In this document: positions 334-41,016 of the stretch, piece by piece
Numbering within the stretch: position 1 is the first letter of the stretch
Layout: every line of letters starts with the position of its first letter
NCBI GenBank assembly: GCA_025935615.1
Contig: JAICUY010000004.1
Coordinates: 1-47,057 of the forward strand
Length of the DNA stretch: 47,057 nt
Direction of reading: 5' to 3'
From: Steroidobacteraceae bacterium
Lineage (GTDB): Bacteria; Chloroflexota; Limnocylindria; QHBO01
The notes under the pieces: generated by a model
What the model was told of the DNA's origin: nothing
The model's database searches: none
The model's input: the letters and a program-made list of their open reading frames with translations, nothing else
Made by a program: the position numbers and the translations under genes

Positions 334-909
334 TCAGGTCGAAAGGTTGACCTCGGGGACCACCGCATCGGCCTCGCCGATCTGGAAATACTGTCGTTCG
401 CCGAACCCGAACAAGCCTGCCACCAGCACGTTGGGGAAGGTCTGCACCGACGTGTTCAGCTCGCGCACCGTCGCGTTGTAGTGCTGCCGCGCGAAGCCGA
501 TCTGGTTCTCCGTGGTGGTCAGCTCCTCCTGCAGCTCGAGCACATTTGCGTTGGCCTTCAGCTCAGGATAGTTCTCGACCACCGCGAACAGCGAGCGCAG
601 AGCACCGGTCAGCGCGTTCTCGGCCGCAGCCGCCTCACCTGCCTGCGCCGGACCCCGCGCGCCGGCGGCCACGGCGGAGGCACGCGCATCGGTCACGTTC
701 TGTAGCGTCTGCTGCTCGAACTGCATGTAGCCCTTGACCGCGTTGACCAGGTTCGGGATCAGGTCGTGGCGGCGCTTGAGCTGGACACTGATCTGGTTCC
801 AGGCCTCGTCGACCTGGTTGCGCAGCCGGACCAGCCCGTTGTAGACGAAGATCAGGAACAGGGCGATGACGGCCAGCACGATCAGCAGGATCCAGACGAC
901 GCTGGGCAT
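334..909 (-). CDS. LemA family protein
   Basis: N-terminal TM helix followed by NQVDEAWNQISVQLKRRHDLIPNLVNAVKGYMQFEQQTL, typical LemA. Confidence 0.93.
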   Translation of the reverse strand: MPSVVWILLIVLAVIALFLIFVYNGLVRLRNQVDEAWNQISVQLKRRHDLIPNLVNAVKGYMQFEQQTLQNVTDARASAVAAGARGPAQAGEAAAAENALTGALRSLFAVVENYPELKANANVLELQEELTTTENQIGFARQHYNATVRELNTSVQTFPNVLVAGLFGFGERQYFQIGEADAVVPEVNLST

Positions 910-956
910 GGTCTCCTCCGTCTTCCTCGGTCCCCGGTGCGGCCGGTAGCCGTGGC

Positions 957-1033
957 TGGTGGGCGGTGAGGGACTCGAACCCCCGACCCCCTCGGTGTAA
1001 GCGAGGTGCTCTGACCGGCTGAGCTAACCGCCC
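957..1033 (-). tRNA. tRNA-Val (TAC)
   Basis: Reverse complement GGGCGGTTAGCTCAGCCGG...CGCTTACACCG...GGTTCGAGTCC...ACCGCCCACCA; anticodon TAC. Confidence 0.92.
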
Positions 1034-1059
1034 GGTGCGGGCGATGGTAGCCGAAGGAT

Positions 1060-1144
1060 TGGTGCCCAGGCCGGGACTTGAACCCGGATGAGTTGCCTCA
1101 TACGCCCCTCAAACGTACGCGTATACCAATTCCGCCACCTGGGC
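1060..1144 (-). tRNA. tRNA-Leu (GAG)
   Basis: Class II tRNA with long variable arm; anticodon loop TTGAGGG gives GAG; GCCCAGG/CCTGGGC acceptor, encoded CCA. Confidence 0.88.
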
Positions 1145-1159
1145 CCGATGCTGAGGGTG

Positions 1160-1247
1160 TGGTACCGAGGGAGGGACTTGAACCCACACGACCGTAATGG
1201 TCACTAGGTCCTGAACCTAGCGCGTCTGCCTATTCCGCCACCTCGGC
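1160..1247 (-). tRNA. tRNA-Leu (CAG)
   Basis: Class II tRNA; anticodon arm CTAGG-TTCAGGA-CCTAG gives CAG; encoded CCA. Confidence 0.92.
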
Positions 1248-1257
1248 GCGGAGGGAG

Positions 1258-1263
1258 ATTCTA
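1258..1263 (-). promoter_or_regulatory. candidate -10 box TAGAAT for the tRNA-Leu(CAG) cluster
   Basis: ATTCTA on + strand, 10 nt upstream of the tRNA 5' end. Confidence 0.5.
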
Positions 1264-1313
1264 GCGTACCGGCGCCGGCCCGTCGATCGACCGGCGAGCC
1301 GTTGAAGCGTCGC

Positions 1314-1538
1314 CTACAGACCGCCCTGCGGCAGCAGGTTGAGCAGCGAGAAGACGACGAACAGGACGGCCAGCACGATCGTCAGCCGGAACAGCGTGCG
1401 CTCGATGCCACGCCGGCTGCGGTAGGCGGTCACCTCGCCGCCGAAGGCGCCGCCGAGGCCCGTCCCGCGCTGCTGGAGCAGGATCGAGGCGATGAGCGCC
1501 ACGGCCAGGATCATCTGCGCGATGGTCAGCGGGGTCAT
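1314..1538 (-). CDS. secG: preprotein translocase subunit SecG
   Basis: Two TM helices, LLQQRGTGLGGAFGG motif. Confidence 0.92.
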   Translation of the reverse strand: MTPLTIAQMILAVALIASILLQQRGTGLGGAFGGEVTAYRSRRGIERTLFRLTIVLAVLFVVFSLLNLLPQGGL

Positions 1539-1560
1539 AGGGCGCGGAGTATAGCAGCGG

Positions 1561-3093
1561 TCATTCGATGAGGCTGTGGCCGGTCATCTCCGGCCCCGGC
1601 GGGATGCCGAGCAGCTGGCAGACCGTCGGCGCCACGTCGGCCAGCAGGCCGTCGCGCAGGTGCGCGGCCTCGTACCCGGTCGCCACCAGCGCGAGTGGCA
1701 CCGGCGAGGTGGTGTGCTTCGTCTGCGGCTGGCCGTGCTCGTCGCGCATCTGCTCGATGTTGCCGTGGTCGGCGGTGATGATGAGGGCTGCATCGGTGCC
1801 GAGGGTTGCGCGAACGAGCCGTCCGAGACAGGCGTCGACCACCTCGGCCGCCTCGACCGCCGCGTCCCACACCCCGGTGTGGCCGACCATGTCCGGGTTG
1901 GCGTAGTTGGCGACGATGAAGCCGTACTCGCGTTGCTCGATCGCCTCCACCAGGCGGTCGGTGATCTGCGGTGCGCGCATCGCCGGCGCCTTGTCGTAGG
2001 TTGCCACCTCCCGGTCGGACGGCACCAGGACGCGATCCTCGCCGGGGAACGGCGCCTCCACCCCACCGTTGAAGAAGTAGGTCACGTGTGCGTACTTCTC
2101 GGTCTCCGCGATGTGCAGCTGCCGGATGCCCCGGCGCGACAGCTCGGCGGCCAGCGAGTCGATCCGCAGCGGGGGGAAGGCGACCGCGACCGGCAGCTCG
2201 TCCGGCGACTGATACTCGGTCAGCGTGGCAAACGCCAGTTCGGTGGGCATGGCGCCCCGGTCGAAGGCGTCGAAATCGTCGAGCACGAAGGCCTGCGTCA
2301 GCTGCCGCGCCCGGTCGGCGCGGAAGTTCATGTGAATCACCGCGTCGCGGTCGTGCACCGTCCCTTCGGACAGCACCACCGTCGGCTCGATGAACTCGTC
2401 GGATACGTCGCGCGCATACGATTCGGCGACGGCCTCGCGCGGGGTGTCAGCCGATCGACCGATGCCGTGCACGATCGCGTGCCACGCCCGCTGCGTACGC
2501 TCCCAGCGCTGGTCGCGGTCCATGGCGTAGTAACGGCCGCTGACCGTCGCGATGCGCGCCAGGCCGGCAAGCCGCTGCTCGAGGGCCGGCAGGATCTCGA
2601 TCGCGGACCGCGGAGGCGTGTCCCGACCGTCGGTGAACGCATGCAGGAAGACGCGGTCCGCCGGCAGGCCCCGCGCATGGGCCAGGCGCGCCATGGCGAC
2701 GATGTGCTCATCGACCGCGTGGATGCCGCCAGGCCCCACCAGGCCGAGCAGGTGCAGCCGGCCATCGTGGTGCAGCGCGTGATCGACGGTCGCGTCCAGG
2801 ACCTCGTTCCGAGCGAACGAGCCGTCTTCGATCGCTCGCGTGATACGCGGCAGGTCCTGGAGCACCGGAAAGCCGGCCCCGAGGTTGAGATGGCCCACCT
2901 CGCTGTTGCCCATCTGTCCCGCGGGCAGGCCCACCGCCGTGCCGGACGCCTGCAGCTCGCAGGTCGGCCACTCGTCGACGATGCGCCGCCAGTTCCACAT
3001 CGCGGCGGCCAGCAGCGCGTTGCGCTGCGGATCGTCATTCACGCCGAAGCCGTCCAGCACGCACAGGACGACGCGGTGGACAGCGTCGATCAC
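1561..3093 (-). CDS. gpmI: 2,3-bisphosphoglycerate-independent phosphoglycerate mutase
   Basis: VLCVLDGFG, GLPAGQMGNSEVGHLNLGAG, DGRDTPPRS, ITADHGNIEQM motifs. Confidence 0.97.
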   Translation of the reverse strand: MIDAVHRVVLCVLDGFGVNDDPQRNALLAAAMWNWRRIVDEWPTCELQASGTAVGLPAGQMGNSEVGHLNLGAGFPVLQDLPRITRAIEDGSFARNEVLDATVDHALHHDGRLHLLGLVGPGGIHAVDEHIVAMARLAHARGLPADRVFLHAFTDGRDTPPRSAIEILPALEQRLAGLARIATVSGRYYAMDRDQRWERTQRAWHAIVHGIGRSADTPREAVAESYARDVSDEFIEPTVVLSEGTVHDRDAVIHMNFRADRARQLTQAFVLDDFDAFDRGAMPTELAFATLTEYQSPDELPVAVAFPPLRIDSLAAELSRRGIRQLHIAETEKYAHVTYFFNGGVEAPFPGEDRVLVPSDREVATYDKAPAMRAPQITDRLVEAIEQREYGFIVANYANPDMVGHTGVWDAAVEAAEVVDACLGRLVRATLGTDAALIITADHGNIEQMRDEHGQPQTKHTTSPVPLALVATGYEAAHLRDGLLADVAPTVCQLLGIPPGPEMTGHSLIE

Positions 3094-4834: not shown

Positions 4835-6098
4835 GGTCCTCCTGCTGCAGCCGCATCAGGGCCGCGGCCAGCTTGGCGGGATCGTGGCGGTGGGCGTTGG
4901 CGACGTCGATGAGGTCCTCCTCGATGACGACGACCGGCAGCTCCTCGAGGCGCCGTATGTCGAGCTCCACCGGCTCGGCCTCCCAGTGTTGCGGGCGACG
5001 CGCCTTGCGGTTGTCGTTGATCAGGACGTAGTCGATGAGTCCTTCGCCGATGTGGTTGAAGAGCGCCTCGAGGTGCTCGGCGGCCGAGAAATGCTCCGTC
5101 TCGCCCGGCTGGGTCGCGACATTGCAGACGTAGATGCGCAGGCCGCCGGCCGCGGCAATCGCGTCGCGGATATCGGTGATCAGCAGGTTGGGCAGGACGC
5201 TCGAGAAGAGGCTTCCGGGACCGATGACGATCATGTCCGCTTCGAGGATCCGCTCGAGCGCCTCCGGATTGGCGCGCACGTCGGCGGGCTCGATCGTCAC
5301 CTGGCCGATCGGCTCCTCGGCGTGGCTGATCGAGACCTGGCCCTGAAGGTGCCGGCCGGACTCGAGCGTGGCGCCCAGGTTGAGCGGGACGCTCGTGGCC
5401 GGCAAGACCTGGCCGCGCACCGCAAGGACACGGTTCGACTCGCGCACCGCCTCCTCGAAGTCACCGGTCACTGCCGTCATGGCGGCGATGAACAGGTTGC
5501 CGAAGGCGTGGTCGTCAAGCCCGGAGCCGGCCGGGAAGCGGTACTGCATCAGCTGCGTCATCAGCGGCTCGGCGTCGGCCAGCGCTGCGATGCAGTTGCG
5601 GATGTCGCCGGGCGGGATGATCCCCAGCTGCTGGCGCAGCCGCCCCGACGAGCCACCGTCGTCGGCGACCGCCACCACCGCCGTGATATTGGCGCTGTAG
5701 CCCTTCAGCCCGCGCAGCAGCGTCGATAGCCCGGTCCCGCCACCGATGGCCACGATCCGCGGTCCGCGCGCCAGGTAGCGCTTGGTGTAGAGGACCTCCA
5801 TCACCGAGTTGCCGCGGCTGACGAACGGCGATACGACGCTGCGCATCAGGCCCCAGACGCCGACCGCGGTCACGGCCAGACCGATGCCGGCGAAGATCGC
5901 GGCGCGCAGCTCGGGCGGCATCCAGGCACCGGTCAGGGCGTAGATGATCGGGATGTCGTCGCCGGTGGACCGATACAGGTCGCGCACGAAGACGGCGGCA
6001 CCGAGTCCCAGGACCAGGATGCCCATGAAGACGAGCACCAGCCAGCGCTTGAGGTGCATTCCGGGGTACAGCCAGCGCGGGATGCGCAGGCGTCTCAT
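4779..6098 (-). CDS. YvcK/CofD-like gluconeogenesis factor with N-terminal transmembrane extension
   Basis: VAIGGGTGLSTLLRGLK, AVADDGGSSGRLR, GDIRNCIAAL motifs; two hydrophobic segments precede the catalytic domain. Confidence 0.94.
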   Translation of the reverse strand: MRRLRIPRWLYPGMHLKRWLVLVFMGILVLGLGAAVFVRDLYRSTGDDIPIIYALTGAWMPPELRAAIFAGIGLAVTAVGVWGLMRSVVSPFVSRGNSVMEVLYTKRYLARGPRIVAIGGGTGLSTLLRGLKGYSANITAVVAVADDGGSSGRLRQQLGIIPPGDIRNCIAALADAEPLMTQLMQYRFPAGSGLDDHAFGNLFIAAMTAVTGDFEEAVRESNRVLAVRGQVLPATSVPLNLGATLESGRHLQGQVSISHAEEPIGQVTIEPADVRANPEALERILEADMIVIGPGSLFSSVLPNLLITDIRDAIAAAGGLRIYVCNVATQPGETEHFSAAEHLEALFNHIGEGLIDYVLINDNRKARRPQHWEAEPVELDIRRLEELPVVVIEEDLIDVANAHRHDPAKLAAALMRLQQEDRGDRPRQRRFARPTATAS

Positions 6099-7110: not shown

Positions 7111-8079
7111 TCAGGCGCCACGCGTCCCGCGCTCGAGCCCGTCGAGCAGTCCCTGGACGGTTGCCGCTGCGGAGGCACGCAGCGCGTCGAGGTCGTATCC
7201 GCCTTCGAGGGTGAGGGCCACCCCGCGAAGCTCCAGCCGCGCGGCCAGCTCGCCGAGCGCGGTGGCCACGTCCCAGTAGCCACGGTCGGTAACCTCGAGG
7301 TCGGCGAGTGGATCGGCCGCGTGGGCGTCGTAGCCGGCCGACACGAGAATCGCCTCGGGCCGGAAGGCCGCGACCGCCGGCAGCAGCTCGCCGGTCCAGG
7401 CCGACACGAACGCCGCGTCGCCGCTTCCCGGGGAGAGGGGCACGTTGTGCTTCGTCCCCGCGCCCGATCCCACGCCCTGCTCGTCCCGATTGCCACTCCC
7501 CGGGAAGAGCGGAACCTGGTGGGTCGAGGCGTAGCACAGGTCCGGGTCCGCGCCGAAGATCTCCTGCGTCCCATCGCCATGGTGCACGTCCCAGTCGACG
7601 ATCGCCACGCGTCGTGCGAGGCCGGCGGCGCGCAGCGCCGCCACCGCCAGCGCGACGTTGTTGAGCAGGCAGAACCCGCTCGCCCGCTCCGCTCCTGCGT
7701 GGTGTCCCGGCGGCCGCACCACCGCGAACGCCACGTCCGCCTCGCCGTGCCCTACGGCGCTCGCGGCCTGGATCGTGGCACCTGCCGCCAGCCGCGCCGC
7801 GCGCATCGAGTCGCGACCGAGGTACGTATCCGGATCGAGCCAGCCGCCGCCGGCCGCGGCCGCCTCGTCGAGCGCGGTCAGGTATCGGTCCGCATGCACC
7901 GGCGTGATCGCCTCATCCCCGACGGGCTGCACCGCACGGCGCTCCAGGCGTGCTCCGGCTGCGGCCGCGCCATTGGCCACCCCGCCCTCGACCGCCGCCA
8001 GCCGTTCCGGCCGTTCCGGATGGTCGGGAGGAGCATGGAGCGCCATGGCCGCATCTGTCAGCAGCAGGACGGTCCGCAT
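7111..8079 (-). CDS. histone deacetylase family protein (AcuC/HDAC-like amidohydrolase)
   Basis: RPPGHHAGAERASGFCLLNNVALA, IVDWDVHHGDGTQEIF, SAGYDAH, EGGYDLDAL motifs. Confidence 0.95.
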   Translation of the reverse strand: MRTVLLLTDAAMALHAPPDHPERPERLAAVEGGVANGAAAAGARLERRAVQPVGDEAITPVHADRYLTALDEAAAAGGGWLDPDTYLGRDSMRAARLAAGATIQAASAVGHGEADVAFAVVRPPGHHAGAERASGFCLLNNVALAVAALRAAGLARRVAIVDWDVHHGDGTQEIFGADPDLCYASTHQVPLFPGSGNRDEQGVGSGAGTKHNVPLSPGSGDAAFVSAWTGELLPAVAAFRPEAILVSAGYDAHAADPLADLEVTDRGYWDVATALGELAARLELRGVALTLEGGYDLDALRASAAATVQGLLDGLERGTRGA

Positions 8080-8085
8080 CGGTCC

Positions 8086-9953: not shown

Positions 9954-11713
9954 GCCACGCCTGCCACGGCCGCTCCCGCCGCCACCGGGATGGCTGCCAG
10001 ACGTCGCGCCAGCAGCGGGCTGGCGTCCGCGTCGGCGTAATCGAGGACGCGGAGTCGCAGCCGCGGCATGCCCTGGAACAGGTCGCGCTCGAGCGTGCCG
10101 ACCAGGTCGATCGCGCTGCCCGGCTCGGGCAGGGGCCGCTCGCCTGGCGTCCCGAAGGCGATGGCGTCGAAGATCTCGGCTCCGCGCCGCAGTCGGAGGA
10201 GGAGGTGTTGCTCGGCGGCGCCGACACGCCGCGCTTCCCCGACCCGCAGGCCGGTCACTGCGAGGATCGGCTCGACATGGCCCGGCCCGAACGGCGCGAG
10301 GCGCTCGAGCTCTTCGGCGAGCGGCCAGCCGAGGTAGCCGGCGCTCAGAACGAGATCGACGGCGACCCTGCCGGCCGGCAGGACCTCTCCTGTCCCGGCC
10401 GGGTACGGCCGAGCCAATCCGCGGAAGGCCTCGGCAAACGCGGCCCAGCTCCCCGAACGCAGGCTGAAGCCTCCGGCGGCGGCATGTCCGCCGCGGCGCT
10501 CGAGATGCTCGCCGCAGGCGTCGAGCGCCTGCGCCACGTGGAAATCGGCGGGCGCGCGCACCGATCCGCGCAGCTCGCCGTCGAGCTCGGTGACGACAGC
10601 GACCGGACGCGCCAGCCTGTCGCTCAGCCGGCCGGCGACCAGTCCGATCAATCCCGGTGGCCAGGACCCGCGGATGAGCAGTGGACCGGTGCCGTCGTCG
10701 GCGAGTACGGTGGCCTCCTCGACGGCGCTCGTCGTCAACTCGCGACGGCGCAGGTGCACCTCCTCGAGCTCGGCGGCCAACTGCTCGGCGCGCGCGGCGT
10801 CCTCCTCGAGCAGCAGCGCGATCGCCAGCTCGACATCGGCGATGCGTCCGGCAGCATTGATACGCGGCGCGACGCCGAAGCCGAGATCACGGGCGGTCGG
10901 CTGCAGTGGCTCCTCGGCAGCGACGGCAAGCAACGAACGCAACCCGGCGCGCGATGTGGTCGCCAGCTCCGCGAGCCCCAGCCGCACGATGGCGCGGCTC
11001 TCGCCCGTCATCGGCGCCAGATCGGCGATCGTCCCGATCGCCGCCACCGCGGCCAGGTCCGAGGCAGCCCCGCCGCGTCGGGCCAGGAGCGCAGACGCCA
11101 GCTTGTAGGCCACCCCGGCCCCGGTCAGGTCCGGATCGGGATAGCCGCAATCGGCGCGATGCGGGTCGACCACCGCCACCGCCCGAGGCAGCTGCGCGGG
11201 CGGCAGGTGGTGATCGGTGACGATGACCTCCATGCCGAGCGAGCGAGCGACCTCGACCTCGGCCGCGTTCGAGACCCCGCAGTCGCAGGTGACGACGAGG
11301 CGCGCGCCGCGATCGGCCAGCTCGCGCAGGCCCCGCTCCGACAAGCCGTAGCCTTCGGCCAGCCGCGACGGCACGTAGCGCAGCGGGTCAGCACCGAGCG
11401 CGCGGAGCGCGATCATCCAGACCACCACGGCGGTCATGCCGTCGGCGTCGTAGTCGCCCCAGATCGCGATTCGCTCCCCCGCCGACAGCGCCGCCTCCAG
11501 GCGGCGCAGCGCGACATCCGCATCCGCCATGAGCGCCACGTCATGCAGCGAGTGCTCGCCGGCCTGCAGCAGGCGGGCCACGTCCGCATCGGTCCGGTAG
11601 CCGCGGCGAGCGAGCAAGGTGGCGACCGGGGCGCCGAAGCCGTCCAGCCGGGGAGGATCAGGGTAGGGCTCGGGCAGGACCCACGCCAGGCGCGGCACGA
11701 TCACGGCCGCCAT
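9950..11713 (-). CDS. recJ: single-stranded-DNA-specific exonuclease RecJ
   Basis: IAIWGDYDADGMTAV, VTDHHLPP, DLGFGVAPRINAAGRI, RGGHAAAGGFS motifs. Confidence 0.96.
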   Translation of the reverse strand: MAAVIVPRLAWVLPEPYPDPPRLDGFGAPVATLLARRGYRTDADVARLLQAGEHSLHDVALMADADVALRRLEAALSAGERIAIWGDYDADGMTAVVVWMIALRALGADPLRYVPSRLAEGYGLSERGLRELADRGARLVVTCDCGVSNAAEVEVARSLGMEVIVTDHHLPPAQLPRAVAVVDPHRADCGYPDPDLTGAGVAYKLASALLARRGGAASDLAAVAAIGTIADLAPMTGESRAIVRLGLAELATTSRAGLRSLLAVAAEEPLQPTARDLGFGVAPRINAAGRIADVELAIALLLEEDAARAEQLAAELEEVHLRRRELTTSAVEEATVLADDGTGPLLIRGSWPPGLIGLVAGRLSDRLARPVAVVTELDGELRGSVRAPADFHVAQALDACGEHLERRGGHAAAGGFSLRSGSWAAFAEAFRGLARPYPAGTGEVLPAGRVAVDLVLSAGYLGWPLAEELERLAPFGPGHVEPILAVTGLRVGEARRVGAAEQHLLLRLRRGAEIFDAIAFGTPGERPLPEPGSAIDLVGTLERDLFQGMPRLRLRVLDYADADASPLLARRLAAIPVAAGAAVAGVA

Positions 11714-18055: not shown

Positions 18056-18077
18056 GACCGATGCGGATGATGGCTCG

Positions 18078-20292: not shown

Positions 20293-23214
<2,922 letters not shown>

Positions 23215-23220
23215 CGGTCC

Positions 23221-23226: not shown

Positions 23227-23237
23227 CCAGACCGATA

Positions 23238-23251
23238 CGAACGCCTGTTCG
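23238..23251 (-). promoter_or_regulatory. LexA/SOS-box-like palindrome upstream of uvrA
   Basis: Minus-strand CGAACAGGCGTTCG, 13/14 to the Gram-positive (Cheo-type) consensus CGAACRNRYGTTYC, over the expected -35 position of the uvrA promoter. Confidence 0.65.
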
Positions 23252-24887: not shown

Positions 24888-25499
24888 TCAGCCGCCGTCC
24901 TCGCCACCGCGCAGCCTGTCCACGGCGCGCAGGTCGTCGGCGATCGCCAGGCGCAGCATCCGACGCACGCCGTCGGCGGTCGAGCCGGCGGCGGCCAGCG
25001 CATCGGTCAGGGCCTGGCGGGTCGCGTACAGCCGGTCGACCGGATCGGCCCCGTCGTCGGGGACCTGGCTGCCCAGCGCGCCGACAAAGGCAACGTCCTG
25101 ATCGGCGATCCGGTCGAGGTCCTCGGCCGCCGCCTCGGGTCCGCAGGCATCGAGGGCGTCCGCCAGCTCCTCGCGGGCGAGCTCGAGCCACCGGAGGAAC
25201 TGCTCGTACTCGGTGTCCGAGGGCGGCAGCTCGTCGAGCGAGAACGCAGCGCGCGCATCGGGCGTGGCAGCCGCGCGCTCGACCTCGTACCAGTTGTCGC
25301 CGACGAACTCGGCTGCCTCCTCACCGGCCGACCGCAGCCAGCTCGTGAAGCGCGCCACGCGGCGCGGGATGGCCGCCACCGCATCGGTATCCGAGGAGGC
25401 GAAGGTGGCGCAGCCGGGAAGCTCGGCGGCGTAGGCCGCGAAGCCACCGCCGGGAAGGTCGGTCTCGACGAAGACGGCGTGCGGCATGGTGCCCGCCAT
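24888..25499 (-). CDS. hypothetical protein, possible HicB-like N-terminal segment
   Basis: FVETDLPGGGFAAYAAELPGCATFASSDTDAVAAIPRRV resembles HicB-like strand-turn patterns; alpha-helical C-terminus; start 25499 or 25487. Confidence 0.55.
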   Translation of the reverse strand: MAGTMPHAVFVETDLPGGGFAAYAAELPGCATFASSDTDAVAAIPRRVARFTSWLRSAGEEAAEFVGDNWYEVERAAATPDARAAFSLDELPPSDTEYEQFLRWLELAREELADALDACGPEAAAEDLDRIADQDVAFVGALGSQVPDDGADPVDRLYATRQALTDALAAAGSTADGVRRMLRLAIADDLRAVDRLRGGEDGG

Positions 25500-27782: not shown

Positions 27783-28406
27783 ATGCGCACCTTCTTTCAG
27801 CCCGTCCCGCGCTACCCGCTGAGCGCCTCGCCGCGCGCTCGGCTGCCGCGACGCGCCTCGGTCCGCGGCCAGGCCATGGTCGAGTTCGCCGCCGTGCTCC
27901 TTCCGGTGCTGCTGCTCGTGGTCGGCATCATCCAGTTCGGCCTGCTGTTCGGCGCGAACGTGACGCTCACCAACGCCGCGCGCGAGGGCGCGCGGGCCGG
28001 CACGGTGGAGGTCTACAACCCGACCGTCAGCCGGGCCGAGAACGACCAAGACCGATGCACCGCGATCCTGGCCGCCGCCAAGAACGAGTTCGGCCTGCTC
28101 AGCGACGGCGCGCCTCACTTCAGCGCCACCAGCCCCTGCCCGCTCACGGCGGGAAGCGCCGACGGCAGCACATGGACCAACGGGGACCTGCTGATCCGAT
28201 ACTGCGACCACGTCACCACGCCCGATGGCGACTGCCCCGACTCGACCGATCCGGACACGGCCTGCGGCGCCGACAGCCGCGAGGGCTGCCTGGTCCGCGT
28301 CGAGCTCAGCTATCGGTCGGACATCATCGTGCCGTTCATCGGGCCGCTCCTCGGCGGCGGCAGCCTCTTCGGACAGCACTCCAGCGCGACCATGGTGGTC
28401 AACTGA
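27783..28406 (+). CDS. TadE-like pilus assembly protein
   Basis: [46 protein letters not shown], typical TadE N-terminal helix. Confidence 0.88.
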
Positions 28407-30349: not shown

Positions 30350-30373
30350 GCCGCACAAGGAGAACTACCCCTC

Positions 30374-31198
30374 GTGGAACTCGAGTACTCGGACAAGAAC
30401 AGCAAGCGCTCCAAGCTCTACATCGCGGTAGGGCTGGTGATCGCGCTCATCGTCGGGGGGCTCGTCTTCGTGGCCCTGCGCTTCAGCAACATCGGATCGG
30501 GCGAGACGGCCGTCGAGGAGCGCCAGGTGGTCGTCGCCGCGCGTTCCATCGCCAGCCGCAAGCCGATCGAGGAGGGCGACCTGGTGATGCGCACCGTCGC
30601 CGCCGACCCAACCAACGCGACCGCCTTCGCCCGCATCGACGAGGTGCTGGGCCGGATCACCGGCGTACCGATCGCGCCCGGCCAGCTGGTGACGCCAAAC
30701 GTGCTGGCATCGACGACGTCGGGACAGGCGTACTCCATCCTCGAGGCGGGACAGGAGTTCGATCCCAACGGCCCGCCGCTCCGTGCGGTATCGGTCAATG
30801 TCGGCGACGACAAGGCGGTCGCCGGCACGCTGCAGCCGGGCCAGACCGTCGACCTGATCGTGACCCTCAACGTCAACCCGCTGGCCGGGAAGAAGGCGCA
30901 GACCGTGGCGGCCCAGGCCGGCGACCCGATCGCCGGGCCGTCCACCAAGGTGACGCTGCAGAAGGTCACCATCCTCGCCCGCAACGGCGGCAGCTACATC
31001 CTGCGCACCGATCTGACGACCGCGGAGAAAATCATCGAGCTGACGGCCGCGGGCGGGCAGTTCGCCATGGTCCTGCGCCCGGAGCCGGACGACCGGGTCG
31101 CGGACACCCCGGGGTCGACCCTCGACCAGCTGATCGAGGAGTTCGGCTTCCCGCCGCCGCGCGTGGCCGAGATCTCAGACCAGCAGGCGCGACCTTAG
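30374..31198 (+). CDS. Flp pilus assembly protein CpaB (SAF domain)
   Basis: N-terminal TM, VVVAARSIASRKPIEEGDLVMR SAF-like segment, PIAPGQLV, RAVSVNVGDDKAVAGTLQPGQTVDLIVTL. Confidence 0.88.
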   Translation: MELEYSDKNSKRSKLYIAVGLVIALIVGGLVFVALRFSNIGSGETAVEERQVVVAARSIASRKPIEEGDLVMRTVAADPTNATAFARIDEVLGRITGVPIAPGQLVTPNVLASTTSGQAYSILEAGQEFDPNGPPLRAVSVNVGDDKAVAGTLQPGQTVDLIVTLNVNPLAGKKAQTVAAQAGDPIAGPSTKVTLQKVTILARNGGSYILRTDLTTAEKIIELTAAGGQFAMVLRPEPDDRVADTPGSTLDQLIEEFGFPPPRVAEISDQQARP

Positions 31199-31776: not shown

Positions 31777-32666
31777 CGGTCAGGCGGCCCGCCGAATGGC
31801 TGGCAGTGCGCGCAGAAGTGGGTGCTGCGCTGCCCGACAACGATGCGGCTGATGGGCCGGCCGCAACGCAGGCATGGCTCGTCGGTCCGCCGGTAGACCT
31901 TCAGCCGCTCGGCGTTGGCACCCGGCTCACCGTCCGCTCCGACATAGTCGCTGAAGCTGGCGCCTCGGTTGCGCACTCCCTGGCGCAAGACCGACCGGAT
32001 CGACCGATGCAGCCGCCGCACCTCCTCGTCGCTCAGCGAGTCTGCCGGCCGCAGGGGATGCAGGCGCGCGCGCCACAGCGCCTCGTCGGCGTAGATGTTG
32101 CCGATGCCCGCGACGAACGACTGGTCGAGCAGGAGCGTCTTCAGGCGCGCGCGGCGTCCCCGCAACCGCTCCCGGAGCCGATCGCTGCTGAAGGCAGCGG
32201 CGAGTGGCTCCGGCCCGTGGCGCGCGAAGACATCGCCGACCCGCTCGCGCAACCTCGCGGGCCCCTTTCGCCGTGCCGCGCGCTGGCGCAGCCCGCCGCC
32301 CTGCCACAGCCCGATCCGACCGAACTTGCGCACGTCGCGATAGCGCAGCTCGCGGCCGTCGGCGAGGGTGAAGATGACGCGGGCATACGGATCGGGCGCC
32401 GTTCCCGGCGGGCTCACGATCAGCGCGCCGGTCATGCGCAAAGCGACGGTCAGCACGCGGCCGTCCGCAAGGTGAATGAGCACCGTCTTCGCCCGGCGCC
32501 CGACCCGATCGATTCGGGCACCGCGCAGCTCGACCACGAACCGTTCGGGCGGCTGCGGATGGACAATCGTGCGCTCCCATGCGACGGCGGCATCGACGAT
32601 AGTCGCGCCGGCGACCCAGCGCTGCAGGTCGCGGGCGACGGTCTCGACCTCGGGGAGCTCCGGCAT
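31773..32666 (-). CDS. mutM: formamidopyrimidine-DNA glycosylase
   Basis: MPELPEVETVARDLQRWV; LLLDQSFVAGIGNIYADEALW; C-terminal zinc finger CLRCGRPISRIVVGQRSTHFCAHCQ. Confidence 0.97.
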   Translation of the reverse strand: MPELPEVETVARDLQRWVAGATIVDAAVAWERTIVHPQPPERFVVELRGARIDRVGRRAKTVLIHLADGRVLTVALRMTGALIVSPPGTAPDPYARVIFTLADGRELRYRDVRKFGRIGLWQGGGLRQRAARRKGPARLRERVGDVFARHGPEPLAAAFSSDRLRERLRGRRARLKTLLLDQSFVAGIGNIYADEALWRARLHPLRPADSLSDEEVRRLHRSIRSVLRQGVRNRGASFSDYVGADGEPGANAERLKVYRRTDEPCLRCGRPISRIVVGQRSTHFCAHCQPFGGPPDR

Positions 32667-32698: not shown

Positions 32699-35567
32699 TC
32701 AGACCAGCTCGGCGCTCACCTCTTCGTCGGCCTCTTCACGGGCGACCTCGCCCGCCGACTTCGGCCGGCGCCGCCAGGCGCCATCGACCAGCTCGTATCG
32801 GTCCATCTGCTCCCAGTTCTGTCCGACCTTCAGGTCGACCTCGAGCGGCACGTCGAGCGGCAACGCTCCCTCCATCAGCTCCTTGACGAGAGTGGCGAGG
32901 TCCGGCAGCTCCTCCTCATCGGTCTCGAAGACGAGCTCGTCGTGGACCTGGAGCAGCATCCGCGAGCGGAGGCCGCGCTCGCGGAGCGCCGCGTCGACGC
33001 GAACCATGGCGATCTTCATCCCGTCGGCCGCCGTGCCCTGGATCGGCATGTTGATCGCCATCCGCTCCCCCGCCGATCGCAGCGCGCCATTACGGGCGGT
33101 GAGCTCGGGGAGGTAGCGCCGCCGGCCCAGCAGCGTGGTGACGAACCCCTGGTCGCGGGCCAGGATCTTCATCTCGACCGTGTAGCGCCGAATGCCCTCG
33201 TACGCCGCGAAGTAGTCGGCGATGAAGCGCTGCGCTTCCTCGCGCGGAATCTTCAGCCGCTCGGCCAGGCCGTAGTCCGAGAGGCCGTAGGCGATGCCGT
33301 AATTGATCATCTTGGCCACGCTGCGCTCCTTCGGCCCGACCTGTTCGGGCGCCAGCCCGAGCACCCGAGCCGCGGCGGCGAGATGGATGTCGGAGTGCGC
33401 GTCGAAGTCGGCACGCAGCCCCGGATCGGCCGAGACGTGGGCCAGGATGCGGAGCTCCTGTTGGGAATAATCGGCGCCCAGCAGCAGCTTCCCCGCAGGC
33501 GCCACGAAGGCGCGACGGATACGGCGCCCGAGGCTGGTGCGAATCGGGATGTTCTGAAGGTTCGGATCGGTGCTCGACAGCCGCCCGGTGGCGGCCACCG
33601 CCTGCTGGTAGGTCGTGTGCAGCCGGCCCTCGCCGTCGACCAGCGTCGGCAGCGCGTCGACATACGTCGACTTCAGCTTGGCGACCTGCCGGTGCTCGAG
33701 GATGAGGCCGATCGCCTCGTGCTTGTCGCGCAGCTCCTCGAGGACCGATGCATCGGTCGAATAGCCGGTCCGCGTCCGCTTGGTGGCCGGAAGCTGCAGC
33801 TCGTGGAAGAGCACCTGCTCGAGCTGCTTCGGCGAGCCGATGTTGAACTCACGGCCCACCAGGGCGTAGATGCGTGTCTCCAGGTCATGCAGCGTCGTGC
33901 CGAATTCGTCGCGCATGGCCGCCAGCGCGTCGAGGTCGAGACACACGCCGGCCAGCTCCATGCGGGCCAGGACCGGCACCAGCGGCATCTCGACCTGGTC
34001 GAACAGGTTGGCGAGACCCGCGTCGGTCAGCTCCCGCTCGAGGGCGGGCCGCACGAGCAGCGCCGTCAGTGCCTCACCCGCCGCGCGACGCGCGGACGCC
34101 GCCTCTTCGGCGCCGGTCTCCGGATTCAGCGGCTTCGGCGGCAGCTCGCCGCCGTAGCGGGCAGCGACCAGGTCGTCGAGCGTCTGCGAGCGCAGCGCAG
34201 GGTTGACCATGTACGACGCGACCTGCGTATCGAAGCAGCTGCCGTCGAGCGCCACCCCGCGCGCGCCGAGCATGACCATCAGCTGCTTGATGTCGTGCCC
34301 GACGACGGGACGGTCGCCGCGCGAGAACCACGCCGGCAGTGGACGATCGTCGGTCCACGGGAGGTACCAGGTCGTCCCATCCGCGCCGGCCAGCGCGACC
34401 CCGAACAGATCCCGATCCAACGGACGCCCGGCGCCGGCCGCCCAGCCGAGGCCCACCGCATCCTCGTGCGCCGTCAGCCACGCGTCGAGGGCGACCAGGT
34501 CATCGTCCCCGCGGGCGATCCGCGGGTCGACGTGCTCGATCGCGCCACCCGGATTGCCGAGCGGATCCGGCTGCGATCGCGGGAGCCGCGGCGCATCGGC
34601 CTCGGCCCGCGCGGCGCCACCCAGCAGGTCGAGGCTGAGCTGCAGGCCGCCCTTCGTCTCGCGATCGGTCGGCTCCGGCCCGCTGGGCGCGATGCTCGAC
34701 GCCGGCAGCCGGTCGATCAGGGACCGGAACTCCAGCTCGCGGAAGCGCTGCGCCACGGCGCGGCGGTCGTAACGACCGGTGCGCGCTTCCTCGATCTTCA
34801 GCTCGACCGGCAGGTCGCACAGGATGCGGCCGATCTGGCGGCTCATGAATGCCGACTCGCGGTGCTCGGCCAACCGATCGCGCAGCTTGCCCTTCACCTC
34901 GTCCAGCCGCTCGTAGATTGCGTCGAGCGATTCGAACTGCTGCAGCAGCTGGCTGGCCGTCTTCTCGCCGACGCCCGGGACGCCCGGAATGTTGTCCGAG
35001 GTGTCGCCCTTGAGGGCCTTGTAATCGAGCATCTGGCTCGGCGTGAGGCCGTATCGGTCCATCACCCTGGCTTCGTCATAGATCACCGTCGCCGCCACGC
35101 CCATGCGCGTAGTGAGCAGCCGCACGTGGTCATTGACCAGCTGGAGGCCGTCGAGATCGCCGGACACGATCATCGTGTCGATGCCCGCCGCGGTCGCCTC
35201 CTGGACCAGCGTGCCGATCACGTCGTCGGCTTCATAGCCCTCGAGCTCGCGGATGGGCATCCCCATCATGGTCGCGATCTCGCGGACCAGCGGGAACTGG
35301 CTGCGCAGGTCGTCGGGCATGCTCGGCCGGCCGGCCTTGTACTCCGGGTACGCATCGAAGCGGAACTGCGGCTTGCCCATGTCGAAGGTCACGATGGCGT
35401 AGTCGGGCTTGATGTCCTGCATGCCCCGCAGGACGATCTGCAGGAAGCCGAATGCGGCGTTCACCAGCGTCCCGTCCGAGGTGGTCAGCGGCGGCAGCGC
35501 GAAGTAGCCGCGGTACACCAGGCTGGGACCGTCGATCAGCATCAGCAGGGGTCGTCGTTCAGGCATG
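32699..35567 (-). CDS. polA: DNA polymerase I
   Basis: N-terminal 5' nuclease (LLMLIDGPSLVYRGYFAL), palm motifs LLGADYSQQELRILAH and MLLQVHDELVFE; start at 35567. Confidence 0.97.
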
Positions 35568-35590
35568 GCCGATGGCCAGTCTAGACCGAT

Positions 35591-35609
35591 GCGGCCGGTT
35601 CCCGGCCGC
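35591..35609. repeat. perfect 8-bp stem hairpin/palindrome GCGGCCGG-TTC-CCGGCCGC
   Basis: Read directly in the polA/DnaJ divergent intergenic region. Confidence 0.7.
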
Positions 35610-36154: not shown

Positions 36155-36760
36155 TCACCCCGCTCGCGGCAGGACGGCGTAGCGCAGCACCAGCGCGCCG
36201 GCGACGAGGACGAGGCCCGCACCCAGCACGACCGGCCACACCACGACGTTGACGGGCGCGGACGGCGGCGTCTGCCCATGCTTGGCGCCGCCGTCAGTGG
36301 CGAGGTTCCGACCACCGTCGTACGCGTCGTAGCCGCTTGGCGCGGGCTGGCCTCCGCCCGAGACTGCTCCCTGGTCGGTCGCGGGCTGCGCCACCTCGGC
36401 CGGCGCGGCACCGCTGGCGGCCATCCCGCTCAGCAGCGACCCGAAGGAGCCGACGCCGCCAGCGACCGCCAGCAGCACCCCTGCCGCCAGCGTCGGCGCG
36501 AACAGCCCGCGCAGCAAGCTCGTGCGGCCGCGACCAGGCTCGGGTGCCGGCGGCAGCAGGCGCAGCGGACGCGGCGGCGTCACATCGGGAAGGGCCGACA
36601 GCGCCGTGCGCAGGGCAGCCAGCTCGTCGACCGTGCGGCGGCATCGGTCACAGCTGGCGACGTGTGCGATCAGCGCCCGGTCGGCGGTCGCCTCCGGATC
36701 GCCCTCCGCCAGCGCCGAGAGCCGCTCGTCGTCGGGATGGCGGTTCGGGTCGTGCATCAT
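36155..36760 (-). CDS. zinc-finger anti-sigma factor-like membrane protein
   Basis: HVASCDRCRRTVDELAALR zf-HC2 motif, TM segments, encoded just downstream of an ECF sigma factor. Confidence 0.82.
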   Translation of the reverse strand: MMHDPNRHPDDERLSALAEGDPEATADRALIAHVASCDRCRRTVDELAALRTALSALPDVTPPRPLRLLPPAPEPGRGRTSLLRGLFAPTLAAGVLLAVAGGVGSFGSLLSGMAASGAAPAEVAQPATDQGAVSGGGQPAPSGYDAYDGGRNLATDGGAKHGQTPPSAPVNVVVWPVVLGAGLVLVAGALVLRYAVLPRAG

Positions 36761-36773: not shown

Positions 36774-37406
36774 TCATGGGCGGAACAGTTCCCGCTGCTC
36801 GGCCAGCAGTTCGCGCAGTCGGAGCCGTCCGCGGTGGATGCGTGACTTCACCGTGCCAAGCGCCGACGAGGTCAGCGAGGCGACCTGGTGGTAGTCCATC
36901 CCGTAGACGTCGGCGAGCACGACCGCCGTGCGCTGGTCCTCGGGGAGCAGCCGCAATGCAGCGTCGAGGTGCCGGTACATCTCGCCTCGCGCCGCCTCGT
37001 CGGACGGCGCCGGCAGGCCGTGATCGGCCAGCTCGGCCTCGCCTTCGGCCGGATCGGGAAGCGCCTGCGTCGGTCGCCGCTGGGCGCGGCGCAGGATGTC
37101 GTACGCGGCATTGGCGGTGATGCGCAACATCCACGAACGGAACGCGCCGCCGCGGTATCGGTCGATGGCGTCGAAGGCGTGCACGAAGGCGTCCTGCGTC
37201 GCATCGGCCGCCATTTCCGCATCGTTGAGCAGCCGCCAGGCCAGGCCATAGCAGGCGCTCTGGTAGTGCTCGACCAGCCTGGCGAAGGCGCCGCGATCGC
37301 CGGCGACGGCACGTGCCACGAGCGCCTCCTCGTCGGGAAGCGGCGCGGTGCGCCGGGTGGCCGCTGGCTGGGGCTCGGGCATCGGCTGCCTATAATGACG
37401 CGGCAC
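36774..37406 (-). CDS. ECF-type RNA polymerase sigma factor
   Basis: Region 2 DATQDAFVHAFDAIDRYRGGAFRSWMLRITANAAYDILRR; region 4 LPEDQRTAVVLADVYGMDYHQVASLTSSALGTVKSRIHRGRLRLRELL; start possibly 37382. Confidence 0.93.
   Translation of the reverse strand: MPRHYRQPMPEPQPAATRRTAPLPDEEALVARAVAGDRGAFARLVEHYQSACYGLAWRLLNDAEMAADATQDAFVHAFDAIDRYRGGAFRSWMLRITANAAYDILRRAQRRPTQALPDPAEGEAELADHGLPAPSDEAARGEMYRHLDAALRLLPEDQRTAVVLADVYGMDYHQVASLTSSALGTVKSRIHRGRLRLRELLAEQRELFRP
37391..37396 (+). promoter_or_regulatory. -10 box TATAAT of tRNA-Leu(CAA)
   Basis: Consensus TATAAT 13 nt upstream of the tRNA 5' end; no clear -35 seen. Confidence 0.55.
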
Positions 37407-37496: not shown

Positions 37497-37550
37497 GCCC
37501 TGCTAGGCTGGCGCGGCCCAACCGTCGCTTGAGGGAGTGCGGACCGATCC

Positions 37551-38234: not shown

Positions 38235-39102
38235 CGGGTTCGTCCCGGCGGCTGCCGTCCACCGTCGCGATCTCCGACCAGGCGCCGGCATACAGATCGG
38301 CACGGATCGGCAGGTAGCCCGGATACTCGGTTCGGTTCTGCGCGATGACTCGCGAGTCGAGCGTGACGAGGGCGACGGGATCGGTCGTCTCGACGAGCAT
38401 CTCGCCGTCCGGGTCGACCGCTACCGATGGCCCGCCGATCAGGACACCCTCCTCGGGGTGCGGCCGGTTGACGCTGATCACGTACACGCAGCTCGTCAAC
38501 GCGATGGCACGGAAGACGATCCGCCACCGCGCATAGGTCGCTTCCTCGGTGGCACGTGGCGCCAGGACGGCGTGCACGCCCTGGGCGCCCAGGAGGTGCG
38601 ACCCCTCCGGGCGGTTGATATCGCTGCAGATCTGGACGCCCACGGGCAGCCCGAACACATCGATGCGCCGGGGCGCCTGTGTCCCCGGCCGGTAGTGGCT
38701 CGTCTCCCAGAAGCCGGGCTCCTCGGGCAGATGCAGCTTCTCGTAGGTCGCGCACAGCTCACCGGTGCGGTCAAAGACGAGCGCGCGGCTCGTTCGCCTG
38801 CCGTCGTCAGCCCGGTGGATGATGCCGCCCACCAGACCGATGCCGGCCTCGCGCGCGGCGTACGCCTGCGTCTGCATCCGCGGACCACCCATCGGTTCGG
38901 CGTCCGCCTCGACAGCATCCTTTGTCGCCGGCCGCCACGGGTTGAGCGGAAGCTCGGGAAGCACGGCGACGTCGGCACCCTGCTCGGCAGCTTCGGTCAG
39001 TCGCTCGCGGAGCCGCTGCTGGCCGTCCGGTTCCCAGAAGACCTCCGAAATGAGCGCGACGGTGAGCTTGCCATCGGTCCGAGGCGCGGGCGTATCGGTC
39101 AT
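38224..39102 (-). CDS. carbon-nitrogen hydrolase (nitrilase superfamily)
   Basis: Glu in LPELPLNPW, Lys in YEKLHLPEEPGFWE, Cys in VGVQICSDINRPEG catalytic triad pattern. Confidence 0.92.
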   Translation of the reverse strand: MTDTPAPRTDGKLTVALISEVFWEPDGQQRLRERLTEAAEQGADVAVLPELPLNPWRPATKDAVEADAEPMGGPRMQTQAYAAREAGIGLVGGIIHRADDGRRTSRALVFDRTGELCATYEKLHLPEEPGFWETSHYRPGTQAPRRIDVFGLPVGVQICSDINRPEGSHLLGAQGVHAVLAPRATEEATYARWRIVFRAIALTSCVYVISVNRPHPEEGVLIGGPSVAVDPDGEMLVETTDPVALVTLDSRVIAQNRTEYPGYLPIRADLYAGAWSEIATVDGSRRDEPASR

Positions 39103-39147
39103 GCGCGGAGCCTACCCGCTCCGTGGCTCGCCCGCCCAGTCGCGCGC

Positions 39148-39181
39148 CGAACCGTTCGGATTCACGCCAGGCGACCATTCG
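39148..39181. repeat. direct repeat copy A (34 bp)
   Basis: CGAACCGTTCGGATTCACGCCAGGCGACCATTCG; 30/34 identical to copy B. Confidence 0.75.
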
Positions 39182-39318
39182 GGCGCGCGCTTGTTGCTTC
39201 GAAGGTACGGTCGCTGAACATGACGCGCTGTCCGTGAGGTTCGCCCTTCGCGGGCGGGCAGCACAGGCTTGGGTCCGTCGGCCTTCGGGCGCCCTGCCGA
39301 GCGGTCTCTTGTGGTTCG

Positions 39319-39352
39319 CGAAACGTCCCGATTCACGCCACGCGACCATTCG
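39319..39352. repeat. direct repeat copy B (34 bp)
   Basis: CGAAACGTCCCGATTCACGCCACGCGACCATTCG; 171 bp after copy A. Confidence 0.75.
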
Positions 39353-39381
39353 CAGCGGACGCCGAGCCTGCGAGCCTCCGA

Positions 39382-39400
39382 ATTCACGCCTCACGTGAAT
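39382..39400. repeat. inverted repeat ATTCACG-CCTCA-CGTGAAT
   Basis: 7-bp arms, 5-bp spacer. Confidence 0.8.
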
Positions 39401-39451
39401 GGGAACTCTTCTACCGCAGAATGAGCGCGAGGAGAGCACCCGTATGGGAGC

Positions 39452-39474
39452 GATTTCACGCCTGACGTGAAATC
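39452..39474. repeat. inverted repeat GATTTCACG-CCTGA-CGTGAAATC
   Basis: 9-bp perfect arms, 5-bp spacer; abuts the stop codon of the minus-strand ORF 39473-39811. Confidence 0.82.
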
Positions 39475-39811
39475 AGCCCTTTGGATGCGAACCGCCGCCA
39501 TCGCCATTCGAAGGACCGCCGTCGACAGCGGCCCGGAGCAGACCGATGTAGTAGGAGGCGTTCCGCGTGACGTCGGCGTAGTCGGATGGGCGCAGCGAGC
39601 CGAGCTTGTTATAGCGCTCGACGAATCGCTCGGCGGCCTTGCGGCCATCGGTCTGGCCCCAGCCACTCGACTCGGGCGTGAAGAACGGGCAGTTCTCAAC
39701 CGTCGATACGCCGACGGTGAATCCCTTGCCACGGACCGTCTCGAGCCGCTGCCCCTCGAAGCGGCGCGCGAGGTCCAGCAGTCCCTGGTACGTCATCGAC
39801 GAGCGCCCCAC
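39473..39811 (-). CDS. conserved-looking small hypothetical protein
   Basis: ORF with VENCPFFTPESSGWGQTDGRKAAERFVERYN and RPSDYADVTRNASYYIGLL; sits just downstream of the Rieske oxygenase. Confidence 0.65.
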   Translation of the reverse strand: MGRSSMTYQGLLDLARRFEGQRLETVRGKGFTVGVSTVENCPFFTPESSGWGQTDGRKAAERFVERYNKLGSLRPSDYADVTRNASYYIGLLRAAVDGGPSNGDGGGSHPKG

Positions 39812-39815
39812 CGCC

Positions 39816-40901
39816 CTACTCCCCCAGGAACTCGCGGATCAACGACTGGAAGTGATAGACGCCGTTCTCGCGCTTCGCGCTGAATCGGCCGGTGTCGTAC
39901 GAGCGCGAGCGCAGGCCGCGCTGCACCTGCTCGCAGATGACGATGTCCTCCTGCTGGATCTCGTCCGAGAAGGCGATCGTCTGCTGCATGCTCTCCCAGC
40001 CCGGCCCGGTGCCTGGCTCGGCGAAGAACCACTCGAAGATGGTCAGGGTCCTGTCCGGACCGACAGGCAGGATCACGTTCGACGACATGTTGTCCTGGTA
40101 GATGTTGAACATCGTGTTGGGAAAGAGCCAGTAGTAGAGCGCCGACTCCTCCGCTCCTGGCTGCCGCAGGTAGCGACGGTCGACCCCGATCTCCTGCCCC
40201 GGCTTCAGCTCGCGGATGGGGGCGTGCTGCTTGGAGTAGAAGCGAAACTCTTCCACCCGGTAGTTGTCGTAGTCGAGCTCCTTGAACAGGCTCGGGTGCG
40301 CGATCGGCAGGTGGTAGCCCTCGAGGTAGTTGTCGACGTAGACCTTCCAGTTGCAGTCGATCAGATAGTCGCGGCGCTCGACCAGGCGCATGGACTCGAC
40401 GTCGTAGCCCGCGGCCGCCACCTCGTCCGGAATGGCGCCCATCACCTCGCGCAACGGCGGAGCCGAGTCGGAGAGATTGACGAAGACGAACGGCCCCCAT
40501 CGGTCGACCCGCACCGGCATGAGCCCGAAGTCCTCCTTGCGGAAGCCATCGCTCTCCTCCATCTCCGGCGCGGCACGCAGGCAGCCGTCGAGTCCGTAGG
40601 TCCAGCCGTGGTAGCGGCATTGCAGCGACTTGCGGTTCCCCTTGGTCAGCGCCACCTGGCCCGCCCGATGGCGGCACACGTTGTAGAAGGCGCGCAGCTC
40701 CTCGTCGAGGCCGCGCGTGATCACGATCGGCTCGTCGAGGACGGTCACCGGCACGAAGTCGCCGACGCGCTGCAGCTCGTCGACGCGGGCCACGAGCTGC
40801 CAGGTCGCGCCGAAGACTCGCTCCTTCTCGTCCTCGAGGTAGGCAGGGTCGAGGTAGTAACGCGACGGCAGCGTTCGCGCGCGCGCCAACGGGATCGACA
40901 T
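39816..40901 (-). CDS. Rieske [2Fe-2S] aromatic ring-hydroxylating oxygenase alpha subunit-like protein
   Basis: Rieske motif CRHRAG...CRYHGW; mononuclear iron site DNYLEGYHLPIAHP; start 40901. Confidence 0.93.
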   Translation of the reverse strand: MSIPLARARTLPSRYYLDPAYLEDEKERVFGATWQLVARVDELQRVGDFVPVTVLDEPIVITRGLDEELRAFYNVCRHRAGQVALTKGNRKSLQCRYHGWTYGLDGCLRAAPEMEESDGFRKEDFGLMPVRVDRWGPFVFVNLSDSAPPLREVMGAIPDEVAAAGYDVESMRLVERRDYLIDCNWKVYVDNYLEGYHLPIAHPSLFKELDYDNYRVEEFRFYSKQHAPIRELKPGQEIGVDRRYLRQPGAEESALYYWLFPNTMFNIYQDNMSSNVILPVGPDRTLTIFEWFFAEPGTGPGWESMQQTIAFSDEIQQEDIVICEQVQRGLRSRSYDTGRFSAKRENGVYHFQSLIREFLGE

Positions 40902-41016
40902 GCGCCGAGTGTATCGGTCGAGCAAGCGCCTGACCGATGCAGTAGCGGCATCGGATGCAGTAGCCTTGTCCACAATCGCGCCCGGACCTACGCGACCCGG
41001 GGCCACTGGAGGATCC

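What the first reader, a model, noticed from the sequence alone, without database searches (positions are those of the whole stretch)
686..40940. Over-represented 9-mer GACCGATRC (GYATCGGTC) across the window
Reading both strands I count 22 copies of GACCGATGC/GCATCGGTC. Starts: GACCGATGC at 2457, 5879, 14391, 14456, 18056, 22860, 24520, 28050, 30178, 32002, 33743, 35584, 38834, 40932; GCATCGGTC at 686, 8076, 11586, 21866, 23211, 25000, 33750, 36641. A further 10 are GACCGATAC/GTATCGGTC (5968, 7882, 16063, 23230, 30788, 32795, 35051, 37155, 39092, 40911). A rough single-base model at ~68% GC predicts about one copy in total. The copies lie on both strands, in several reading frames and in intergenic DNA, and often use codons (GAT, GGT) less expected in a GC-rich genome. 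Two copies (8076, 23211) contain a start codon. This looks like a DNA-level signal analogous to HIP1, DNA-uptake or Chi/KOPS-type words, though none of those families has this sequence as far as I know.
Basis: partly seen in the sequence, partly recalled or inferred. Interest (0 to 1): 0.75.

Follow-up and report, generated by a model that had tools for sequence, protein, structure and literature searches.

The report
Family-wide repeated DNA word, purpose unknown
One family of uncultured Chloroflexota bacteria has filled its genomes with a short asymmetric DNA word (core GACCGATG), placing it in about half of the spots its proteins allow, much as bacteria with DNA-uptake tags do; I found no report of anything like this in the phylum, and what reads the word is not yet shown.

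Summary
In detail: 32 GACCGATRC sites in the window against 1.8 expected, and 1206 in the 1.88 Mb draft genome against 10 for the word read backwards. It is a DNA-level signal. In 756 genes there are 438 sites against 46±6 in synonymous-codon shuffles, with excess in all six frames. It tops the coding 8-, 9- and 10-mer lists and the intergenic 8-mer list. Where the protein allows GACCGATGC, 51% of windows carry it, against 4.6% expected; even the proteome is bent (tripeptide TDA 1.8x). All 22 family members (9 genera) have the core GACCGATG at 0.19-0.71/kb; 144 other Chloroflexota have at most about 0.10/kb. Flanks differ between genera like dialects. There is no strand polarity, which excludes KOPS and ordinary Chi, and it is not palindromic, unlike HIP1. 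The best reading is an uptake-signal-like self-marker kept up by biased gain; its reader is unknown. ComEC and DprA are present but PilT is not, so a Tad pilus would have to serve (inference). Certain as a signal; function about 45%.

The parts
686..694 (-). GACCGATGC site
2457..2465 (+). GACCGATGC site
5879..5887 (+). GACCGATGC site, 89 bp from the next one on the same strand
5968..5976 (+). GACCGATAC site
7882..7890 (-). GACCGATAC site
8076..8084 (-). GACCGATGC site; its ATG is the start codon of the histone-deacetylase-fold gene 7111-8079 (-)
11586..11594 (-). GACCGATGC site in the recJ-like gene 9950-11713 (-)
14391..14399 (+). GACCGATGC site
14456..14464 (+). GACCGATGC site
16063..16071 (-). 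GACCGATAC site
18056..18064 (+). GACCGATGC site, intergenic between divergent genes
21866..21874 (-). GACCGATGC site in uvrA (20293-23214, -)
22860..22868 (+). GACCGATGC site in uvrA
23211..23219 (-). GACCGATGC site; its ATG is the start codon of uvrA
23230..23238 (+). GACCGATAC site, intergenic, upstream of uvrA
24520..24528 (+). GACCGATGC site
25000..25008 (-). GACCGATGC site
28050..28058 (+). GACCGATGC site
30178..30186 (+). GACCGATGC site in the TadE/G-like gene 28406-30349 (+)
30788..30796 (-). GACCGATAC site in the RcpC/CpaB-like gene 30374-31198 (+)
32002..32010 (+). GACCGATGC site
32795..32803 (-). GACCGATAC site in polA (32699-35542, -); codons GAC CGA TAC shared with four relatives
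33743..33751 (+). GACCGATGC site in polA, overlapping the next one as GACCGATGCATCGGTC
33750..33758 (-). GACCGATGC site in polA; relatives keep one orientation, the other, or both at this place
35051..35059 (-). GACCGATAC site in polA
35584..35592 (+). GACCGATGC site upstream of polA
36641..36649 (-). GACCGATGC site
37155..37163 (-). GACCGATAC site
38835..38843 (+). GACCGATGC site (reader gave 38834)
39092..39100 (-). GACCGATAC site in the carbon-nitrogen hydrolase gene 38224-39102 (-)
40911..40919 (-). GACCGATAC site
40932..40940 (+). GACCGATGC site

Best explanation
GACCGATRC (core GACCGATG, with flanks that differ by genus) is a genome-wide, orientation-independent DNA recognition word of one Chloroflexota family. 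Shown: it is read as DNA, not protein; about half of the places where coding allows it carry it; it belongs to this family only; it has dialects. Inferred: it behaves like a DNA uptake or self-recognition sequence. A surface or recombination protein would prefer DNA that carries the word, so alleles that gain it are imported and recombined more often, and the word spreads by biased transformation (molecular drive) and marks kin DNA. With no PilT-type retraction ATPase over the family cut-off, uptake would have to use the Tad/Flp pilus plus ComEC and DprA.
For: Density 0.64/kb in G000, both strands equal. Excess over codon shuffles in all six frames, 6-25x. 51% of permissive windows for GACCGATGC are occupied in G000, 33% for GACCGATG in G008 and 22% in G005, against about 5% expected; outgroup families are at background. 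One-substitution neighbours are less depleted (0.54-0.78) than two- or three-substitution ones (0.40, 0.19), and windows 4-5 steps away (probably AGC serine, my reading) escape more (0.66-0.78): conversion by single substitutions with decay products. Peptides that encode the word are over-represented (TDA 1.8x, DRY 1.9x, GPM 2.2x). Intergenic density is higher than coding in G000 (1.00 and 0.59/kb). Same core, different flanks in relatives: RCG after the core in G000, C[AT] before it in G008. At one polA spot relatives use the + copy, the - copy or both. ComEC in 20 of 22 and DprA above the cut-off in 21 of 22 family genomes; Tad genes in the window. Known uptake sequences show dialects (PMC3630211), high conservation in permissive sites (PMC2397512) and a preferred coding orientation (PMC2346458).
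Against: No uptake or transformation data exist; these are draft genomes known from sequence only. ComEC and DprA occur throughout the class, so they do not explain why only this family has the word. No PilT over the cut-off in the family, and characterised uptake sequences work with type IV pili (established knowledge). DUS are absent from recently acquired genes (PMC2397512), whereas here compositionally atypical genes carry as many copies as typical ones. No terminator-like inverted pairs; convergent intergenic regions are the poorest in G000. No receptor candidate was found.
Confidence: 0.45

Rival explanations
1. The word is the binding site of a family-specific chromosome protein (nucleoid, repair or partition protein) or of an orphan methyltransferase, and is kept up by ordinary selection for many sites, as is suspected for HIP1. 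No uptake is involved.
For: Genome-wide even spread including atypical genes; near-random spacing; sites kept in orthologs; strands slightly more balanced than chance in G000.
Against: A type I/IIG methyltransferase (PF02384) is absent from G000 and from most family members, including G001 and G004 at 94% completeness; no NPPY/DPPY-type DNA methyltransferase stood out in the sampled 45% of G000. Over-represented methyltransferase-linked words described in cyanobacteria are palindromes (PMC4390886). Selection on each of about 1200 sites strong enough to change amino acids would be unusual.
Confidence: 0.33
2. A context-dependent mutation or mismatch-repair bias (Vsr-like, or methyl-C deamination) creates the word.
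For: The one-transition precursor GACCGACGC is depleted (33 seen, 83 expected); a neutral bias also predicts excess in all frames and in intergenic DNA.
Against: Windows two or three substitutions away are depleted even more (0.40 and 0.19) than one-transition windows (0.54), which a single-step bias does not predict. Tolerated positions are graded as in a recognition motif.
Confidence: 0.12
3. It is a polar chromosome word: a Chi-like recombination hotspot or a KOPS/AIMS-like segregation guide.
For: High copy number; non-palindromic 8-9 bp.
Against: No strand bias on contigs: a 75% skew is disfavoured by 45 ln units; 37 and 41 copies along 280 kb of G008.
Confidence: 0.07
4. Codon usage, peptide repeats or composition make the word frequent by chance.
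For: Some copies lie in coding repeats (L186); TDA and ASV peptides hold many copies.
Against: Synonymous shuffles, order-1 to order-4 Markov models and intergenic DNA all leave an excess of six-fold or more; most control words are near expectation.
Confidence: 0.01

Closest known systems
DNA uptake sequence (DUS) of Neisseriaceae
   Same: Asymmetric word of about 10 bp, hundreds to thousands of copies, both strands, coding and intergenic, dialects by genus around a shared core (PMC3630211).
   Different: Different sequence and phylum; no ComP or PilT-driven type IV pilus shown; no terminator-type inverted pairs; not poorer in atypical genes; uptake untested.
Uptake signal sequence (USS) of Pasteurellaceae (H. 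influenzae, 9 bp)
   Same: Similar density; proteome shifted towards word-encoding peptides (established knowledge); biased coding orientation (PMC2346458).
   Different: No AT-rich flanking tracts; unrelated sequence; uptake untested.
HIP1 (GCGATCGC) of cyanobacteria
   Same: Lineage-wide saturating word of unsettled function, with derivatives in some genomes (PMC4390886).
   Different: HIP1 is palindromic and co-occurs with CGATCG methyltransferases; this word is asymmetric and no type I/IIG methyltransferase is conserved.
Chi and KOPS words
   Same: Short asymmetric over-represented words.
   Different: Those are polar along the replichores; this one is not.

Membership tests
DNA uptake sequences (DUS/USS) | Strong genome-wide over-representation, both strands equally | tested here: met
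   607/599 copies, controls 4/6; 438 against 46 in shuffled CDS
DNA uptake sequences (DUS/USS) | Family-restricted, with dialects sharing a core | tested here: met
   22 of 22 family genomes high, 144 others low; flanks differ between G000, G005 and G008
DNA uptake sequences (DUS/USS) | DNA with the word is preferentially taken up and transformed | not testable with these tools
   needs a culture or population data
DNA uptake sequences (DUS/USS) | Competence channel and processing genes (ComEC, DprA) | tested here: met
   present in nearly all family genomes, but also in other families of the class
DNA uptake sequences (DUS/USS) | Type IVa pilus with retraction ATPase and word-binding minor pilin | tested here: not met
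   TIGR01420 (PilT) below cut-off in all 22 family genomes, best about 62 bits against a cut-off of 319; minor pilin not searched
DNA uptake sequences (DUS/USS) | Depleted in recently acquired DNA | tested here: inconclusive
   no difference by coding score or by presence of a family ortholog, coarse proxies only
HIP1-type highly iterated palindromes | Palindromic word | tested here: not met
   GACCGATRC is asymmetric; overlapping inverted pairs are rare (one in 840 kb)
HIP1-type highly iterated palindromes | Cognate methyltransferase conserved with the word | tested here: inconclusive
   PF02384 absent from most members; other methyltransferase families only sampled by motif
Chi | Skew to the leading strand | tested here: not met
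KOPS/FtsK guide | Strong polarity switching at ori and ter | tested here: not met
   strand counts on contigs are balanced

The most novel reading that the evidence does not exclude
An independently evolved DNA uptake/self-recognition word outside the Proteobacteria, used by a Tad-pilus rather than a type IVa-pilus system, and driven so hard that it occupies about half of all protein-permissive sites and alters the proteome.
Probability: 0.35. Interest if true: 0.88.

Novelty: new variant of a known kind. Interest (0 to 1): 0.72.

Why it matters
To my knowledge saturating uptake words are established in only two proteobacterial families, and how they arise (drive or selection) is disputed. An independent case in Chloroflexota, with graded strength (0.19-0.71/kb) and dialects across nine genera, gives a natural series for testing drive models and would point to natural transformation in this lineage. 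If it is not an uptake word, then an unknown DNA-binding system has reshaped these genomes and proteins. Practically, the word could help to bin contigs and detect foreign DNA in this family.

Tried and rejected
Codon or composition artefact: rejected by synonymous shuffles, permissive-window occupancy, intergenic DNA and Markov models. Repeat family or CRISPR: copies have no shared flanks beyond the word; only a few clusters are tandem repeats. Chi/KOPS polarity: rejected. Promoter or start signal: upstream copies have no orientation preference (63 and 60) and no distance peak. Terminator pairs as in Neisseria: convergent regions are poorest in G000. Single-step mutation bias: disfavoured. 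Strong positional conservation: first looked 6-fold, but once saturation was taken into account it was only mildly significant in G008 (Fisher p = 0.047), so I do not claim it. Strand alternation in G000 was not reproduced in G008. A comparable word in other families of the class: codon-shuffle scans of G022, G026 and G051 found none. Literature: no paper describing the word was found; the library holds open-access papers only.

Full report
Observation. All 32 GACCGATRC sites are in the window (one coordinate off by one); dinucleotide shuffles give 1.76 on average. In the window's genes alone there are 25 sites against 2.5±1.5 in synonymous shuffles. The window is contig 99 of a 115-contig, 1.88 Mb draft genome (G000, 68% complete) with 607 forward and 599 reverse copies; the word read backwards occurs 10 times.

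Which organism. UvrA from the window is 85% identical to MAG JAPSGM010000013.1 (Chloroflexota bacterium BS_bin.023), then 67-70% to Limnocylindrales-type MAGs. The genome is therefore a Chloroflexota member of or near class Limnocylindria. The family (f1) holds 22 genomes in 9 genera in this collection. I could not fix its GTDB name; P2-11E or QHBO01 (clades named in PMC13212565) are guesses.

It is a DNA-level signal. I called genes in 840 kb of G000. There are 562 sites: 446 in genes, 85 between genes, 31 on gene edges. In 756 genes, 438 copies compare with 46±6 (maximum 61 in 30 shuffles) after shuffling synonymous codons within each gene. All six frame and strand classes are in excess, 6- to 25-fold. 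The word and its overlaps top the 8-, 9- and 10-mer lists against codon shuffles, and the intergenic 8-mer list: 78 copies of the 9-mer against about 4 expected. Third-order Markov expectation is 44.7 + 6.8 against 422 + 140 seen.

Near saturation. Of all peptide windows that could encode GACCGATGC by synonymous choice, 333 of 652 (51%) do, against 4.6% from codon usage; for x-T-D-A it is 155 of 221 (70%). Ala-Ser-Val is GCA TCG GTC in 83 of 212 cases against 3 expected. GACCGATAC fills 25% against 2%. Most control words lie near expectation. Encoding tripeptides are themselves in excess (TDA 1.8x; 104 per 100,000 residues against 59 in G008), so amino acids have probably changed too and the 51% is partly inflated by that. 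33 of 485 ATG start codons sit inside GACCGATG, and GACCG is the commonest 5-mer before a start.

Shape of the word. Against codon shuffles, CCGAT is strict. Position 1 takes G > A,T; position 2 A > G; position 8 A,G > T > C; position 9 prefers C, followed by G. No longer flanking motif is seen. By distance from the word, permissive windows are depleted to 0.54 (one transition), 0.78 (one transversion), 0.40 (two), 0.19 (three), then 0.78 and 0.66 for four and five differences, which I read as mostly AGC/AGT serine windows that cannot convert by single silent steps. This is what biased fixation of single substitutions gives; a one-step mutational bias would deplete one-step precursors most.

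Distribution. GACCGATG runs at 0.19-0.71/kb in all 22 f1 genomes and at most about 0.10/kb in 144 other Chloroflexota genomes, including four other families of the class. Occupancy of permissive windows is 33% in G008, 22% in G005, 18% in G007, 12% in G001, and at background in G022, G026 and G051. Dialects: G000 prefers GACCGATRCG; G008 prefers C[AT]GACCGATG with no RC preference; G005 [AT]GACCGATG[AC]. The share of GACCGATG followed by C (computed) is about 67% in G000, 46-52% in G004, G009 and G020, and 32-36% in G003, G005, G006 and G008. GACCGATAC is abundant only in G000 (306; 37-120 elsewhere).

Positions. In orthologs with identical peptides the word is kept at 61 of 113 places against 10 expected from codon retention, while most control words give ratios near 1. 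Much of this is saturation: where G000 lacks the word at a permissive place, relatives still have it in 16% of cases, and in G008 alone the association is only p = 0.047. In polA the peptide STDASVL carries the + word, the - word or both in different genomes, which suggests orientation does not matter.

No polarity. Strand counts on contigs are not skewed; a 75% skew is disfavoured by 45 ln units, and 280 kb of one G008 contig has 37 and 41. Upstream copies have no orientation or distance preference.

Candidate machinery. ComEC and DprA are present in nearly all f1 genomes but also across the class. PilT (TIGR01420) is below its cut-off in every f1 genome; the weak matches look like Tad-type CpaF ATPases (that identity is inference). 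The window has TadE/G-like and CpaB-like genes. The type I/IIG methyltransferase family PF02384 is absent from G000 and most f1 genomes, and motif scans of sampled proteins showed no convincing DNA methyltransferase of the NPPY or C5 kind; the sample covers about 45% of G000.

Interpretation. The facts match uptake-sequence biology: asymmetric word, equal strands, dialects with a shared core (PMC3630211), conservation at permissive positions (PMC2397512), biased coding orientation (PMC2346458), and a bent proteome. They do not match polar words or palindromic HIP words (PMC4390886). Against uptake stand the lack of PilT, no lower density in atypical genes, and no functional data. I give uptake-type drive 45%, other DNA-binding selection 33%, mutation or repair bias 12%, polar words 7%.

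Limits.

Noticed in passing
G000 sampled contigs (window, L009-L028, L149-L188): Neighbouring sites alternate strand more than chance (58% against 52.6±2.0%) and per-contig strand counts are under-dispersed (chi2 19.9 on 39 df); same-strand pairs are depleted at 300-1000 bp. Not seen in G008.
   Followed up: partly
G000 gene starts, e.g. window 8076-8084 and 23211-23219: About 7% of ATG starts lie in GACCGATG; GACCG is the commonest 5-mer before start codons.
   Followed up: partly
window 27783-31198: TadE/G-like and RcpC/CpaB-like genes of a Flp/Tad pilus locus.
   Followed up: no
L186:14634-14750; L149:6430-6480: Tandem repeats containing the word: an 18-bp coding repeat (SPTDAP type) and three 20-bp intergenic copies.
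   Followed up: no
G000 genes: GGCCGATGC, encoding A-D-A, is also raised (26% of permissive windows against 10%), so position 2 tolerates G.
   Followed up: partly
L134-L138 (G051): CCAACCCCGA occurs 8 times against 0.2 expected in 100 kb of another family; cause unknown.
   Followed up: no
L257 (G041): The only genome of the 46 searched with a PilT over the family cut-off (440 bits).
   Followed up: no
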